From a virus, in the IMG/VR virus record IMGVR_UViG_3300038441_001125, positions 1 to 23,830 of that record: a stretch of DNA of 23,830 nucleotides; one strand, written 5' to 3'. Positions 13,470 through 16,916 of the stretch are shown piece after piece. The position numbers and the translations under genes were made by a program. Numbering within the stretch: position 1 is the first letter of the stretch; each line of letters begins with the position of its first letter. A model generated the notes under the pieces. The model was given only the letters and a program-made list of their open reading frames with translations. It had not been told where the DNA came from and ran no database searches.

Positions 13470-13524
13470 CGTCCCTCTGCTCCCGTCCTTCTAGACTGGG
13501 CAGAGAGGGTGCCACACGAACGCC

Positions 13525-13543
13525 ATTCCCCAAAACCGGGAAT
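13525..13543. promoter_or_regulatory. Inverted repeat, candidate operator in the divergent region
   Basis: ATTCCC and GGGAAT form a perfect 6-bp inverted repeat with a 7-nt spacer. A further half-site ATTC follows at 13549-13552 (GAAT, 5 nt, ATTC). Location between two divergent genes, next to an Xre repressor gene, suggests repressor half-sites. Confidence 0.4.
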
Positions 13544-13558
13544 CACCTATTCGGCCTT

Positions 13559-13590
13559 TATAAGCGTCGGTCCCCAATGAACGGACCGAC
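13559..13590. promoter_or_regulatory. Candidate promoter and 25-bp operator before the Xre gene
   Basis: TATAAG at 13559-13564 is a plausible -10 on the plus strand; the overlapping CTTATAAA reads similarly on the minus strand. Downstream, GTCGGTCC (13566-13573) and GGACCGAC (13583-13590) form a perfect 8-bp inverted repeat with a 9-nt spacer. It spans the expected transcription start and ends 2 nt before the TTG start codon. This geometry fits autorepression by the Xre protein. Confidence 0.5.
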
Positions 13591-13592
13591 CA

Positions 13593-13823
13593 TTGAACCA
13601 CCTCTACAGCAAGCGGCAGGAGAAGCTGTGCGCGCTCCTGAAGGAATGCCGGCTGAAGGCCGGACTCACTCAGCAGCAGCTCGCTGATCGCCTGAAGCGC
13701 AGCGACAACTTCGTTTCGTACGTCGAGCGAGGGGAGCGGACATTGGGAGTGCTCGAGTTCCTCGACTACGTCGAGGCGATGGGCGCCGATCCGAAGGGGC
13801 TGCTCGGCAAGCTAATTAAGTGA
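13593..13823 (+). CDS. Xre-family transcriptional repressor (HTH_3)
   Basis: A 76-residue protein that is essentially one HTH_3 domain: L-L-K-E-C-R-L-K-A-G-L-T-Q-Q-Q-L-A-D-R-L at 15-34, recognition helix and turn N-F-V-S-Y-V-E-R-G-E-R-T-L at 39-51, then V-L-E-F-L-D-Y-V-E-A-M-G-A-D-P. There is no peptidase or dimerisation extension, so it is not a LexA-like CI. TTG at 13593 is the only usable start, because an in-frame TGA lies at 13578-13580 and the SD is weak. That suggests low expression. It is divergent from the leftward zinc-ribbon/Lar operon and convergent (8-nt overlap) with the DUF2335 operon. Likely a local regulator of the accessory region or a lysogeny accessory repressor. Confidence 0.88.
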   Translation: MNHLYSKRQEKLCALLKECRLKAGLTQQQLADRLKRSDNFVSYVERGERTLGVLEFLDYVEAMGADPKGLLGKLIK

Positions 13824-13995
13824 GCGGCCCTTTGCCGGTCAGCTGGTACGAGTCCACTTTCTCGTAGCCGTCCAGGTCGAACACGTCGATTCGACGCACG
13901 AGTACGAGCTTGGTGTCGAACACGTACTCGACGTTCCACAGCGTCCCATCCTTATCGCGCACGATGTCGCCCTTCGTGAAGTCTGTGGGTTTCAT
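13816..13995 (-). CDS. Small beta-rich phage protein (59 aa), unknown
   Basis: ATG at 13995 sits in an ATGA overlap with the stop of the preceding gene, which decides the start over a longer in-frame extension. The product reads M-K-P-T-D-F-T-K-G-D-I-V-R-D-K-D-G-T-L-W-N-V-E-Y-V and then V-L-V-R-R-I-D-V-F-D-L. Alternating hydrophobic and charged residues and G-D-I-V-x-D suggest a small SH3- or KOW-like barrel, a pattern seen in small phage proteins. Last gene of the DUF2335 operon. The function is not known. Confidence 0.65.
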   Translation of the reverse strand: MKPTDFTKGDIVRDKDGTLWNVEYVFDTKLVLVRRIDVFDLDGYEKVDSYQLTGKGPLT

Positions 13996-14189
13996 GGCTC
14001 GCGCTTCCGCATAAACGTCTCGATGTAATCCGCCCGATCGCGCCACAGATCGTACTCGCCCATTGCCTCGCGAGCAGCCTCATCGTCACCGGTCTCGTGC
14101 AGGTACAGGCATCCCGACGCCCAGCGCTCCTGCATTACGATTGTTTGGGCGAGGGCGCCGATGATGGGCTGGATGTCAGGGCGGGGCAT
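13992..14189 (-). CDS. Small acidic phage protein (65 aa), unknown
   Basis: The start ATG at 14189 forms a TAATG junction with the stop of the DUF2335 gene, and its stop overlaps the next ATG by 4 nt, so it lies in a coupled operon. The protein is helical and acidic (H-E-T-G-D-D-E-A-A-R-E-A-M-G-E-Y-D-L-W-R-D-R-A-D-Y-I-E). N-terminal P-D-I-Q-P-I-I-G-A-L-A-Q is amphipathic. No family recognised. Confidence 0.65.
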   Translation of the reverse strand: MPRPDIQPIIGALAQTIVMQERWASGCLYLHETGDDEAAREAMGEYDLWRDRADYIETFMRKREP

Positions 14190-14578
14190 TATTTACGCCC
14201 GCGTATCAGCGCCTGAGCGACGCCAAGAACGGGGACGCCAACGAGGGCAACGCCAACTAACGACGGACCGCCAAAGTAGCTGTTTATGACGGCCGCGAGG
14301 ATTGCTGTGACTCCGATAGCAGCTCCGAGCCACTGACCGCGCCAGTGAGACTTGATGTTGGCGTCCGTACTCGTTTGCTCAATCGCGAGCCGGTGAGATT
14401 GCTCTTGCTCTACCATGCGCAAGATACGATCACCGCCGCCCGGAATAATCCGGTCGAAATGCTCAAGCGCAGCTGGTGGAGGGAGTGGCCCAGACCACTC
14501 CATGGATACTTGTGTCTGCTTACGCTGCGGGACAGTGGGCTGCGGAGGCGGGGCCTTCACTTTTGCGGGGTGCTTCAC
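14189..14578 (-). CDS. DUF2335 membrane protein
   Basis: A 129-residue protein read from GTG at 14578. Residues 28-66 match DUF2335: W-S-G-P-L-P-P-P-A-A-L-E-H-F-D-R-I-I-P-G, then D-R-I-L-R-M-V-E-Q-E-Q-S-H-R. Two membrane helices follow at about 82-101 and 105-123, ending R-G-R-K. The N-terminal 25 residues are Pro/Lys/Gln-rich. A later ATG (residue 26, at 14503) would remove the 59-nt overlap with the upstream gene but has no SD. DUF2335 has no established function; two-helix phage membrane proteins in accessory operons are often superinfection-exclusion candidates, which is inference. Confidence 0.75.
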   Translation of the reverse strand: MKHPAKVKAPPPQPTVPQRKQTQVSMEWSGPLPPPAALEHFDRIIPGGGDRILRMVEQEQSHRLAIEQTSTDANIKSHWRGQWLGAAIGVTAILAAVINSYFGGPSLVGVALVGVPVLGVAQALIRGRK

Positions 14579-14747
14579 GGCTGATTACCGCCCTGAAGTC
14601 ACGGCCGATTCGTTCCCAGTCTGACCGCAGTGCATCAGTGGCAGAAGCGGAAAGCTCGGGTTCCACGCGTTCGCCGAAGATCTCGGCCGGACTACCGAGG
14701 CCTCGTAGAAGGCCGCGCCAGAAGGATTTGCGCATCGGTGTACCCAT
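14520..14747 (-). CDS. Small protein heading the DUF2335 operon, unknown
   Basis: From ATG at 14747 it has 75 residues, beginning M-G-T-P-M-R-K-S-F-W-R-G-L-L-R-G-L-G-S-P. A second in-frame ATG at 14735 gives 71. Neither has a clear SD. The -10 element at 14754-14759 would place the transcription start near 14747, so the first ATG would be leaderless and the second would have a leader of about 12 nt. The N-terminus is amphipathic and basic; the middle reads A-L-R-S-D-W-E-R-I-G-R-D-F-R-A-V-I. It resembles small proteins seen in other phages, of unknown role. The 3' end overlaps the DUF2335 frame by 59 nt. Confidence 0.62.
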   Translation of the reverse strand: MGTPMRKSFWRGLLRGLGSPAEIFGERVEPELSASATDALRSDWERIGRDFRAVISREAPRKSEGPASAAHCPAA

Positions 14748-14753
14748 GAAGTC

Positions 14754-14781
14754 ACTATAACACCTGTGAGACGGCCCACAA
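14754..14781 (-). promoter_or_regulatory. Promoter of the leftward DUF2335 operon
   Basis: On the minus strand TTGTGG (14781-14776) and TATAGT (14759-14754) are spaced by 16 nt. The -10 has five of six consensus bases and the -35 has the TTG core. It lies just upstream of the small gene that starts the operon. Confidence 0.5.
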
Positions 14782-14858
14782 CCGGACATAGTTCCAGGTC
14801 TGGAGACGACTCCGTCGGCGTATTCAGCCCTCCGTACTATCCCGCTCCCTCCTGATCA

Positions 14859-14966
14859 GAGAGTCCATTGAGAGGGGAGCGGCTCAACGCCGCACAACGG
14901 CCACTCCCGGTACCGTGCGAAGGTAACGCACCACGTCTATCCGTGGTCCCCTCCCAATGGACTCTC
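14859..14966. ncRNA. 108-nt inverted-repeat element able to fold as a multi-hairpin junction
   Basis: Arms 14859-14878 and 14947-14966 are complementary at 19 of 20 positions (mismatch at 14871/14954). Inside are three perfect 5-bp hairpins: 14879-14883 with 14889-14893, 14915-14919 with 14927-14931, and 14931-14935 with 14942-14946 (hairpins 2 and 3 share base 14931). The first hairpin starts at the base after the left arm, and the third ends at the base before the right arm, as in a stacked multi-way junction. The element begins right after the stop codon of the 54-residue gene and ends about 75 nt before the next leftward promoter. No convincing coding frame crosses it. Strand, transcription and function are unknown; a DNA-level role or remnant of a mobile element is also possible. 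Confidence 0.45.
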
Positions 14967-15131
14967 CTACTCATCGCAGTTCAGAGGAGTGGCACCGGCC
15001 ACCTCGGCGGACTCGTCGGTCTCGCCCGCAATCAGGCAGTCGATGTGGGCTTCAACATAGTCGAGCTCGACAAGGCCTTTCTTGAAGTCGCCCAGGATGG
15101 CTCGAAGCGTCAACCGTTCTTCTCGTGTCAT
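14967..15131 (-). CDS. Small acidic protein (54 aa), unknown
   Basis: ATG at 15131 has GGAG 7 nt upstream and lies 3 nt after the stop of the 84-residue membrane-protein gene. The 54-residue product begins M-T-R-E-E-R-L-T-L-R-A-I-L-G-D-F-K-K-G-L and ends acidic, A-T-P-L-N-C-D-E. It is helical at first with a single mid-protein Cys (H-I-D-C-L-I-A-G). Conserved small phage proteins with a similar layout exist, but no function is known. Its stop codon directly abuts the 108-nt inverted-repeat element. Confidence 0.65.
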   Translation of the reverse strand: MTREERLTLRAILGDFKKGLVELDYVEAHIDCLIAGETDESAEVAGATPLNCDE

Positions 15132-15134
15132 GGC

Positions 15135-15389
15135 TCAGCTCCGTTCAGACTTATCCACCGGCTGCGGGTAGTGCGCCCACTCCTGGTCCGGGGCGGGATC
15201 GGCCGGCATGGGGGCGGGCGCCGGTGTCCTGCCCAGGTAGTGTACGGCAGCCATGAGCCCGAAGATCAGGGCGGCGAACAGCAAGGATGCCGCAATCAGC
15301 CAGCCGGTCTCGGACGGGATCGGCGGGTGAGTGTCGGTTGGGCGCTCGGTTTGAACGCTGGTGTAGCGAAGTGAAGATCCGTCGTCCAT
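15135..15389 (-). CDS. Single-pass membrane protein (84 aa)
   Basis: ATG at 15389 has GGAGG with 5 nt spacing, much better than the upstream in-frame ATGs. The 84-residue product has an N-terminal Thr/Pro-rich part (about 10-27), a membrane helix at about 29-52 (G-W-L-I-A-A-S-L-L-F-A-A-L-I-F-G-L-M), and a Pro-rich extracytoplasmic or cytoplasmic tail (T-P-A-P-A-P-M-P-A-D-P-A-P-D). It is the first gene left of the attP-like region and coupled to the 54-residue gene. Role unknown; a lysogenic membrane function is possible. Confidence 0.68.
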   Translation of the reverse strand: MDDGSSLRYTSVQTERPTDTHPPIPSETGWLIAASLLFAALIFGLMAAVHYLGRTPAPAPMPADPAPDQEWAHYPQPVDKSERS

Positions 15390-15463
15390 TTCGTCCTCCG
15401 AAATACAGTTGCAACTCATTGTTTCTACGTGCGCCAATCACGCCTATTTGGGCCATTAAAACA

Positions 15464-15529
15464 ATGGCGCCGAAGTAGGCTAAAATCAGGAGAAATCCCT
15501 TTACGATCAGGTGATTAACATGGCGCCGA
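15464..15529. repeat. Direct repeat pair ATGGCGCCGA
   Basis: The 10-mer ATGGCGCCGA occurs at 15464-15473 and 15520-15529, each following an A/T-rich stretch (preceded by ACA and AAC). They lie on the left side of the attP-like region, where lambda has its P-arm integrase sites. Arm-site function is inferred. Confidence 0.45.
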
Positions 15530-15585
15530 TTCGAGTTCTTTTTTGTTGCATGGGGAGCACACGGCGCATCTAAAGTCACCTGGAA

Positions 15586-15598
15586 AATCAAAGCGTTA
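15586..15598 (+). promoter_or_regulatory. IHF binding-site consensus
   Basis: AATCAAAGCGTTA matches WATCAANNNNTTR at every fixed position. Its placement between the predicted core and the tandem repeats equals the H' site of lambda attP. Confidence 0.6.
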
Positions 15599-15606
15599 GA
15601 GGGTTG

Positions 15607-15636
15607 CTCTCCGATTCTCTCCGATTCCCCTCCGTT
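15607..15636. repeat. Tandem 10-bp repeats, candidate integrase arm sites
   Basis: CTCTCCGATT occurs twice without spacer (15607-15616, 15617-15626), followed by a degenerate third unit CCCCTCCGTT. A 10-bp period places each unit on the same DNA face, as in the P'1-P'2-P'3 arm sites of lambda. Confidence 0.5.
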
Positions 15637-15643
15637 ATACAGG

Positions 15644-16726
15644 TCACTTTTTAACATTGATTTTCACCCACTCACCGCGGCCATCAACGTAGGTCGCAGT
15701 GGACTTCGGGTCCTTGTGACTGAGCAAGTCTTGAGGGTCCACATCGCCCTGCTCCTTGTGCAGTCGGGCCGCCAATGACCGAATCTCGTGGAAGGTTGGC
15801 GGCGCCTTGTCAGCCCAGTCGATGCCCAGCTTCGCGAGCTCGGCGGAGAATACCCGAGTGATCATGTCCACGTGCAATGGCTTGCCGATCGTGGCGCCCT
15901 TGACTCGCTGGGTCTGGTGTACGAGGTAGATACTCACGATGCCAGTCTTGCGGCACTGGCTGACGACATCCTCGAGACTCATGCCAAAGACGTTCAGGCG
16001 TAGATGCATCGGCAGGAAGAAGCGTGCGCCTGTTTTGGTTCGCTCGCACCACCAGCCACCATCGCGGAAGTCTGTGAATTTCGCATTCCGAACGCTATCC
16101 CGGTCTTTGCCAGCCACAAGCGCGAGGGCGATGGCATTGCGTAGCCATACGATCTCGGTGGTTTTGTAGAGCCTCATAAGCACGTCCAGCGTGAGCCTGG
16201 AGCGCTTCACCTTGACCTTGACCTCATCCAGCACCCGCGCCGGGTTGTCCTTGCGCCAGCCCTTGGCGATCATCCTGTCGAAGCAGTCGACCAAGAATGA
16301 CCGGAATGCCTGAGCAGTGCGGGCTTTGCCTTCCGAGGTGATCTGGTCAATCACCTTGGCACAGTCCTGCGTGCTGATGCGCGAGGCGGCCAGATCAGCC
16401 TCGAAGCACCGACGTAGGCGGTTCAGCTGGCTCTTGCGGGTGCGTCGCGTATTCGGCCTGGAGTCGCGCTCCTCCAGGATCTTCTCGAAGATGTCGCACC
16501 ACTCGCCCCAAGTGTTAGCTGCTCCGGTGATGCGCTCGAGCAGGCTAGGGCGCTTCGATGCGAGGTACACCTCTGCGGCGAGAACTTCCTGGATGGCCTT
16601 CGTCCGATCGCGGCCGAGCCCATGCTCGACGCCAGTCTCGGGGTTCGTCCACGAGTAGTAGCCATCGCGCACTCGCATACCAGGCCGAAGGGAACGATTG
16701 ATCGCTTTACGCTGCCTTGGAGCCAT
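15644..16726 (-). CDS. int: Lambda-type tyrosine recombinase (integrase)
   Basis: ATG at 16726, which lies inside the 3' end of the excisionase gene, gives 360 residues. The N-terminal arm-binding domain has G-Y-Y-S-W-T-N-P-E-T-G-V-E-H-G-L-G-R-D near residues 22-40, followed by a SAM-like core-binding domain and the catalytic domain. An ungapped mental alignment with lambda Int places K231 (T-K-T-G), H313 and R316 (P-P-T-F-H-E-I-R-S-L), H337 (L-L-S-H-K) and nucleophile Y346 (T-A-T-Y-V-D-G-R-G). The first catalytic Arg (lambda R212) aligns with D208, with R209 next to it. It should catalyse attP x attB recombination. An upstream ATG at 16783 would add 19 residues but is less like the family. 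Confidence 0.93.
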   Translation of the reverse strand: MAPRQRKAINRSLRPGMRVRDGYYSWTNPETGVEHGLGRDRTKAIQEVLAAEVYLASKRPSLLERITGAANTWGEWCDIFEKILEERDSRPNTRRTRKSQLNRLRRCFEADLAASRISTQDCAKVIDQITSEGKARTAQAFRSFLVDCFDRMIAKGWRKDNPARVLDEVKVKVKRSRLTLDVLMRLYKTTEIVWLRNAIALALVAGKDRDSVRNAKFTDFRDGGWWCERTKTGARFFLPMHLRLNVFGMSLEDVVSQCRKTGIVSIYLVHQTQRVKGATIGKPLHVDMITRVFSAELAKLGIDWADKAPPTFHEIRSLAARLHKEQGDVDPQDLLSHKDPKSTATYVDGRGEWVKINVKK

Positions 16727-16916
16727 AGAAACCAGCTGCCTTCGATGGGTCGCGACCGATGAAGACCGCGCTCGGATCAACATAGTACGGCTTCCCGACG
16801 CGCTCAGGAGCTGGGAAAATCCACCCGTCGCGGGCCCAGCGCTGCAGCGTCTTGATGTTGGGCACCGGATCGAACCGAGCAGCTGCCCATGCCTGCAATG
16901 TGATCTTCTTGCTCAT
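16707..16916 (-). CDS. xis: Excisionase-like DNA-binding protein
   Basis: A 69-residue protein beginning M-S-K-K-I-T-L-Q-A-W-A-A-A-R-F, then P-N-I-K-T-L-Q-R-W-A-R-D-G-W-I-F-P-A-P-E-R-V-G-K-P-Y-Y-V. This is the winged-helix excisionase pattern (lambda Xis, PF07825-like): helix, R-W-A-R-x-G-W-I-x-P recognition and wing. It overlaps the integrase start by 20 nt as in lambda xis-int, so the two are co-transcribed leftward. The role is to bend attachment-site DNA and drive excision. No clear SD precedes ATG at 16916; a stronger SD (AAGGGGG) precedes an out-of-frame ATG at 16935, discussed under rejected items. Confidence 0.85.
   Translation of the reverse strand: MSKKITLQAWAAARFDPVPNIKTLQRWARDGWIFPAPERVGKPYYVDPSAVFIGRDPSKAAGFYGSKAA

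What the first reader, a model, noticed from the sequence alone, without database searches (positions are those of the whole stretch)
14859..14966. 108-nt element with a 19/20-bp closing stem and three abutting hairpins
The two 20-nt arms are complementary at 19 positions, and the 68 nt between them hold three perfect 5-bp hairpins. Two of these touch the closing stem with no unpaired base. The element fills the gap between a stop codon and the next promoter in the accessory region. This is more ordered than expected for a spacer and looks like a structured RNA (phage-encoded regulatory or decoy RNA) or a foldback mobile element. I know of no named RNA class with this shape.
Basis: partly seen in the sequence, partly recalled or inferred. 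Interest (0 to 1): 0.7.

Follow-up and report, generated by a model that had tools for sequence, protein, structure and literature searches.

The report
Long hairpin after a phage gene
A little-known temperate phage has an unusually long RNA-type hairpin exactly between the stop codon of a tiny gene and the next gene junction; it is real and not chance, but it has no known relatives and is most likely just the 3' end structure of that small gene cassette.

Summary
The inverted repeat at 14859-14966 is real: 20-nt arms, 19/20 complementary, 68 nt apart, never matched in 200 shuffles of the window. The 'three abutting hairpins' are not special: two share base 14931 and cannot both form fully, and the 68-nt interior folds no better than shuffled sequence (z -1.4 / -0.1). 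Only the closing stem is signal. It pairs better as minus-strand RNA (21 consecutive pairs with two G.U), the direction of xis-int-ORF84-ORF54. The stem starts at the last base of ORF54's stop codon and ends at a junction motif, CTGATCAGGAG. With CTGAACGGAG upstream, this motif brackets other small ORFs in two related phages, so ORF54 plus hairpin looks like one exchangeable cassette. There is no Rfam match and no copy in phages, plasmids, IMG/VR (except the same phage, identical) or sampled Xanthomonadaceae and order-level genomes; two relatives lack it. Covariation is therefore untestable. Best reading: the 3'-UTR long-stem hairpin of a moron-like cassette, acting on mRNA decay or processing (compare lambda sib). 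A mobile foldback relic, a free sRNA and a DNA-level site remain possible. Low-to-moderate interest.

The parts
14859..14966 (-). 108-nt foldback element; 20-bp closing stem (21 consecutive pairs in minus-strand RNA) around a 68-nt GC-rich loop
14947..14966 (-). 5' arm of the stem in minus-strand RNA, directly after the ORF54 stop codon
14859..14878 (-). 3' arm of the stem in minus-strand RNA; its last base is the first base of CTGATCAGGAG
14967..15131 (-). ORF54, a small gene of unknown function whose TAG stop abuts the element; no family match, no homologue found
15129..15148 (-). upstream junction motif CTGAACGGAGCTGAGCC-ATG (ribosome-binding site of ORF54), shared with related phages
14849..14859 (-). 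downstream junction motif CTGATCAGGAG; in relatives it is stop codon plus ribosome-binding site of the next ORF, here without a start codon after it
15135..15389 (-). ORF84 (listed as a 100-aa ORF with an upstream TTG start), small protein with a hydrophobic stretch; its end overlaps the ORF54 ribosome-binding site
15440..15643 (.). presumed attP region, directly after int (by analogy with lambda, D3 and the two relatives)
   Evidence: inferred
15644..16783 (-). lambda/HK022-type tyrosine integrase
16707..16916 (-). excisionase (PF07825, phrog_629)
14520..14747 (-). next small ORF downstream of the element (phrog_26284-like)

Best explanation
The element is the 3'-untranslated hairpin of a small moron-like gene cassette (ORF54 plus hairpin) lying across the presumed attP from int in a D3/lambda-like temperate phage. 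It is transcribed on the minus strand after ORF54, possibly on read-through transcripts from xis-int. The 21-bp stem would act as an mRNA 3'-end signal: either a double-stranded cleavage site for RNase III that sets decay of the upstream genes, as sib does for lambda int, or a block to 3'-5' exonucleases. A ribosome terminating at the abutting stop codon would hinder formation of the stem base. Shown: the stem, its significance, its exact placement, better minus-strand pairing, and the shared flanking junction motifs. Inferred: transcription, processing and effect on decay. The interior loop probably has no specific structure.
For: The stem exceeds 200 shuffles and survives in the 461-nt native context. 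It pairs fully only as minus-strand RNA (21 consecutive pairs with two G.U), the sense of xis, int, ORF84 and ORF54. It fills exactly the space between ORF54's TAG and CTGATCAGGAG. CTGAACGGAG then CTGATCAGGAG bracket a different small ORF in G400 and in L071, so the bracketed unit behaves as an exchangeable cassette; by my estimate such 10-11-nt motifs are expected well below once per genome by chance. The same scan finds lambda's sib/tI hairpin about 233 nt after int in lambda, HK022, 434, Gally, SI8 and HK106, and here the element is the strongest int-sense structure within 1.1 kb after int.
Against: There is no U-tract, so it is not an intrinsic terminator. It lies about 680 nt from int with two ORFs between, unlike sib. 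Related phages G400 and L069 have no long stem in the corresponding region, so it is not conserved. There are no expression data. The only homologue is identical, so there is no covariation. The strand argument rests on two base pairs.
Confidence: 0.42

Rival explanations
1. A non-coding foldback mobile element (MITE-like, 108 bp with 20-bp terminal inverted repeats) that inserted between ORF54 and the next gene.
For: Shape (terminal inverted repeats, no coding), sharp borders with gene junctions, and absence from the syntenic region of relatives.
Against: Single copy in the phage. No second copy by blastn in phages or plasmids, by arm patterns in IMG/VR, or in sampled Xanthomonadaceae/order genomes. 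No target-site duplication at any border shift tried. The host is unknown, so its genome may not have been sampled.
Confidence: 0.2
2. A lambda-sib-like retroregulator of int itself: RNase III cuts the stem in read-through transcripts from the left operon and int mRNA decays, relieved after integration separates int from the element.
For: Same strand as int, on the far side of the presumed attP, and the strongest structure downstream of int. The two relatives and D3 have attP or a tRNA-like stretch directly after int.
Against: About 680 nt away with two ORFs between, against about 233 nt in lambda-type phages. No such stem in relatives G400 and L069. Different sequence and shape from sib.
Confidence: 0.13
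3. An independent small RNA (regulator or decoy) processed from, or transcribed within, this interval.
For: Very stable 108-nt fold, intergenic position, and many phages encode sRNAs.
Against: Interior structure not above chance, no consensus promoter, no Rfam family, no convincing structure-model hit elsewhere.
Confidence: 0.12
4. A DNA-level site (protein-binding inverted repeat or recombination site) with no RNA role, or a neutral remnant.
For: An inverted repeat is symmetric on DNA; the accessory region turns over quickly.
Against: The 68-nt spacing of 20-bp arms is unusual for a dimeric protein site; no other copy of the arms in the phage; better pairing on the presumably transcribed strand.
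Confidence: 0.13

Closest known systems
lambda sib/tI (int retroregulation, RNase III site)
   Same: Strong hairpin downstream of int on the int-sense strand; beyond attP in lambda, and presumably here.
   Different: About 680 nt rather than 233 nt away, two ORFs between, 21-bp stem with a 68-nt loop, no sequence similarity, not conserved in relatives.
Moron-type cassettes of lambdoid phages (small gene with own 3' structure; from memory)
   Same: Small extra ORF between conserved junctions, exchanged between related phages, with a 3' hairpin.
   Different: No U-tract terminator and no convincing promoter found.
Start-associated sequences of cluster K mycobacteriophages (from memory)
   Same: Short conserved sequence containing the ribosome-binding site at junctions of small phage genes.
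   Different: Different sequence (CTGA[A/T]C...GGAG), overlapping upstream stop codons; homology not claimed.
MITEs / foldback repeats such as ERIC or Correia elements (from memory)
   Same: About 100-nt foldback with terminal inverted repeats, intergenic.
   Different: Single copy, no target-site duplication, no sequence match found.

Membership tests
lambda sib-type retroregulator | Strong hairpin downstream of int on the int-sense strand | tested here: met
   Strongest structure within 1.1 kb after int
lambda sib-type retroregulator | Cleavage by RNase III and int mRNA decay | not testable with these tools
   Needs RNA experiments
lambda sib-type retroregulator | Separated from int by attP | tested here: inconclusive
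   attP core not identified; inferred at 15440-15643 from lambda, D3 and relatives
lambda sib-type retroregulator | Close, conserved position (about 233 nt after int) | tested here: not met
   676-785 nt after int, absent in G400 and L069
Intrinsic terminator | Hairpin followed by U-tract | tested here: not met
   No terminator-like site in 13500-16000; the 3' flank is TGATCAGGAGGG
MITE / foldback mobile element | Multiple copies | tested here: not met
   host unknown, so not exhaustive
MITE / foldback mobile element | Target-site duplication | tested here: not met
   No direct repeat at border shifts -8 to +8
Known RNA class (Rfam 15) | Score above gathering threshold | tested here: not met
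Stop-codon readthrough/recoding signal | Open frame beyond the stop codon | tested here: not met
   A second in-frame TAG nine codons on; the read-through product matches no family
Moron-type cassette | Small ORF unit absent or replaced between conserved junctions in relatives | tested here: met
   Same junction motifs bracket other ORFs in G400 and L071
Moron-type cassette | Own promoter | tested here: inconclusive
   No sigma-70 consensus promoter, but the host and its promoter type are unknown

The most novel reading that the evidence does not exclude
The element is a phage-encoded structured RNA of a new class, carried as the 3' half of an exchangeable gene cassette, that regulates int/ORF54 expression or a host target.
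Probability: 0.07. Interest if true: 0.55.

Novelty: new member of a known kind. Interest (0 to 1): 0.22.

Why it matters
If the stem controls decay of the int-side genes it would be a second, independently evolved solution to what lambda does with sib. The clearer gain is the bracketing of exchangeable small-gene cassettes by fixed stop/ribosome-binding-site junctions in this little-known phage group, which would make gene exchange in the accessory region traceable.

Tried and rejected
Rfam at gathering and permissive thresholds (only sub-threshold miRNA and snoRNA hits). blastn in phages and plasmids. Arm-pair pattern in IMG/VR: 12 other hits besides this phage, none sharing the interior. 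Single-sequence covariance model on relatives and 397 genomes: one hit at E 0.009 per genome, judged chance because by eye it overlaps the 3' end of a reading frame and about 3-4 such hits are expected over 397 genomes. blastn hits in Xanthomonadaceae/order genomes, judged chance matches, mostly in coding DNA or upstream of metK. Integrase and ORF54 as baits in viral and bacterial genomes found only the same phage or nothing convincing. Read-through of ORF54 through the element: rejected, second in-frame TAG. A short ORF open through the element in another frame: rejected, GC by codon position not coding-like. Antisense ORF 14868-15374: no family match. X. maliensis and S. sepilia prophages share mainly terminase/head genes, not this region.

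Full report
What is there. The window is an IMG/VR virus record. All 23.8 kb are identical to part of a 59.7-kb phage record. The terminase of that record is 75% identical to Pseudomonas phage D3 and about 70% to prophages of Xanthomonas maliensis and Stenotrophomonas sepilia. The integrase is lambda/HK022-type. At 14859-14966 there is an inverted repeat with 20-nt arms, 19/20 complementary, 68 nt apart.

Is it more than chance. No pair of 20-nt arms this good and this close occurs in 200 dinucleotide shuffles of the window, and it is the only one in the phage. Among 348 kb of related phage and prophage-bearing bacterial DNA, the other pairs of 18/20 or better (three places) were all on the bacterial contigs, so such stems are rare but not unheard of. 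The element folds at -59.0 (+) and -66.4 (-) kcal/mol, z about -7.6 and -7.5. The stem persists in the 461-nt native context. The interior is a different matter: its fold is no better than shuffled sequence (z -1.43 and -0.06), three or more 5-bp hairpins occur in 3.8% of shuffles, and two of the three share base 14931.

Strand. The one arm mismatch (14871/14954) is A.C on the plus strand and G.U on the minus strand. The next pair outward (14858/14967) is also G.U on the minus strand, giving 21 consecutive pairs there. The genes on either side, from xis to the DUF2335 gene, run on the minus strand. This favours minus-strand RNA, but two pairs are weak evidence.

Neighbourhood. On the minus strand: xis (16707-16916), int (15644-16783), a presumed attP (15440-15643, with short direct repeats seen by eye), ORF84 (15135-15389), ORF54 (14967-15131), the element, then a 14520-14747 ORF and DUF2335. 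ORF54's ribosome-binding site lies in the end of ORF84. The stem begins at the last base of ORF54's TAG and ends at CTGATCAGGAG. attP directly after int is annotated in D3 and lambda, and a tRNA-3'-end-like stretch follows int in relatives G400 and L069 (recognised by eye).

Relatives. Tail genes led to G400 (IMGVR 3300045996_001123), G401 and L069 (3300044648_000159). In G400 and L069 the region between int and the XRE gene holds other small ORFs and no long stem, and the covariance model finds nothing in them. G401 ends before this region. The junction motif CTGAACGGAG, followed by a small ORF and then CTGATCAGGAG, occurs in the same order in the window phage and G400 and in L071 (3300049185_000045), which was fetched by the first motif alone. 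L069 has the first motif followed by a diverged second one. In G400 and L071 the second motif is the stop codon plus ribosome-binding site of the next ORF. In the window it follows the element and has no start codon behind it. So ORF54 plus the element occupies the slot of a single small gene: an exchangeable cassette (inference from three phages).

Mechanism. The best reading is a 3'-UTR long-stem hairpin of that cassette, working on mRNA decay or processing. As a positive control, the same scan applied after int in lambda, HK022, Gally, 434, SI8 and HK106 recovers the sib/tI hairpin at about 233 nt; sib is known to lower int mRNA (PMC5300877). The element is the strongest such structure after int here, but at 676-785 nt, with two ORFs between and absent in relatives, so a true sib equivalent is only a rival. 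It is not an intrinsic terminator. Transcription and processing are inferred, not shown.

Mobile element and sRNA readings. No other copy was found in phages, plasmids, IMG/VR arm patterns, or samples of 397 Xanthomonadaceae and 399 order-level genomes, which overlap in part, and there is no target-site duplication. The host is unknown, so this is not exhaustive. No consensus promoter or Rfam family supports a free RNA.

Limits. The only homologue is identical, so compensatory change could not be examined. The single-sequence model is weak for finding diverged copies.

Noticed in passing
window 15129-15148 and 14849-14859; G400 contig 29476 and 29253; L071 7314 and about 6885; L069 17614: Conserved stop/ribosome-binding junctions (CTGAACGGAG..ATG and CTGATCAGGAG..ATG) bracket unrelated small ORFs in related phages, in the same order, resembling start-associated sequences used for cassette exchange.
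   Followed up: partly
window 14790-14858: The junction CTGATCAGGAGGGAGCGGGATAGTA has a strong ribosome-binding site but no start codon; possibly a decayed ORF start.
   Followed up: no
window 14735-14790, minus strand: TTGTGG...TATAGT about 6 nt before the ATG of the 14520-14747 ORF could give a leaderless transcript, as for lambda cI from pRM.
   Followed up: no
window 15440-15643: Direct repeats AATCGGAGAG (x2) and TCGGCGCCAT (x2) just after int look like integrase arm sites of attP.
   Followed up: no
NC_049947 (phage 1H12) about 26708-26800: A 14-bp stem closing about 64 nt lies about 600 nt after int, similar in layout to this element but unrelated in sequence.
   Followed up: partly
L010 2400-2477: The phage record carries a predicted tRNA-Glu(ttc) gene on the minus strand.
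   Followed up: no
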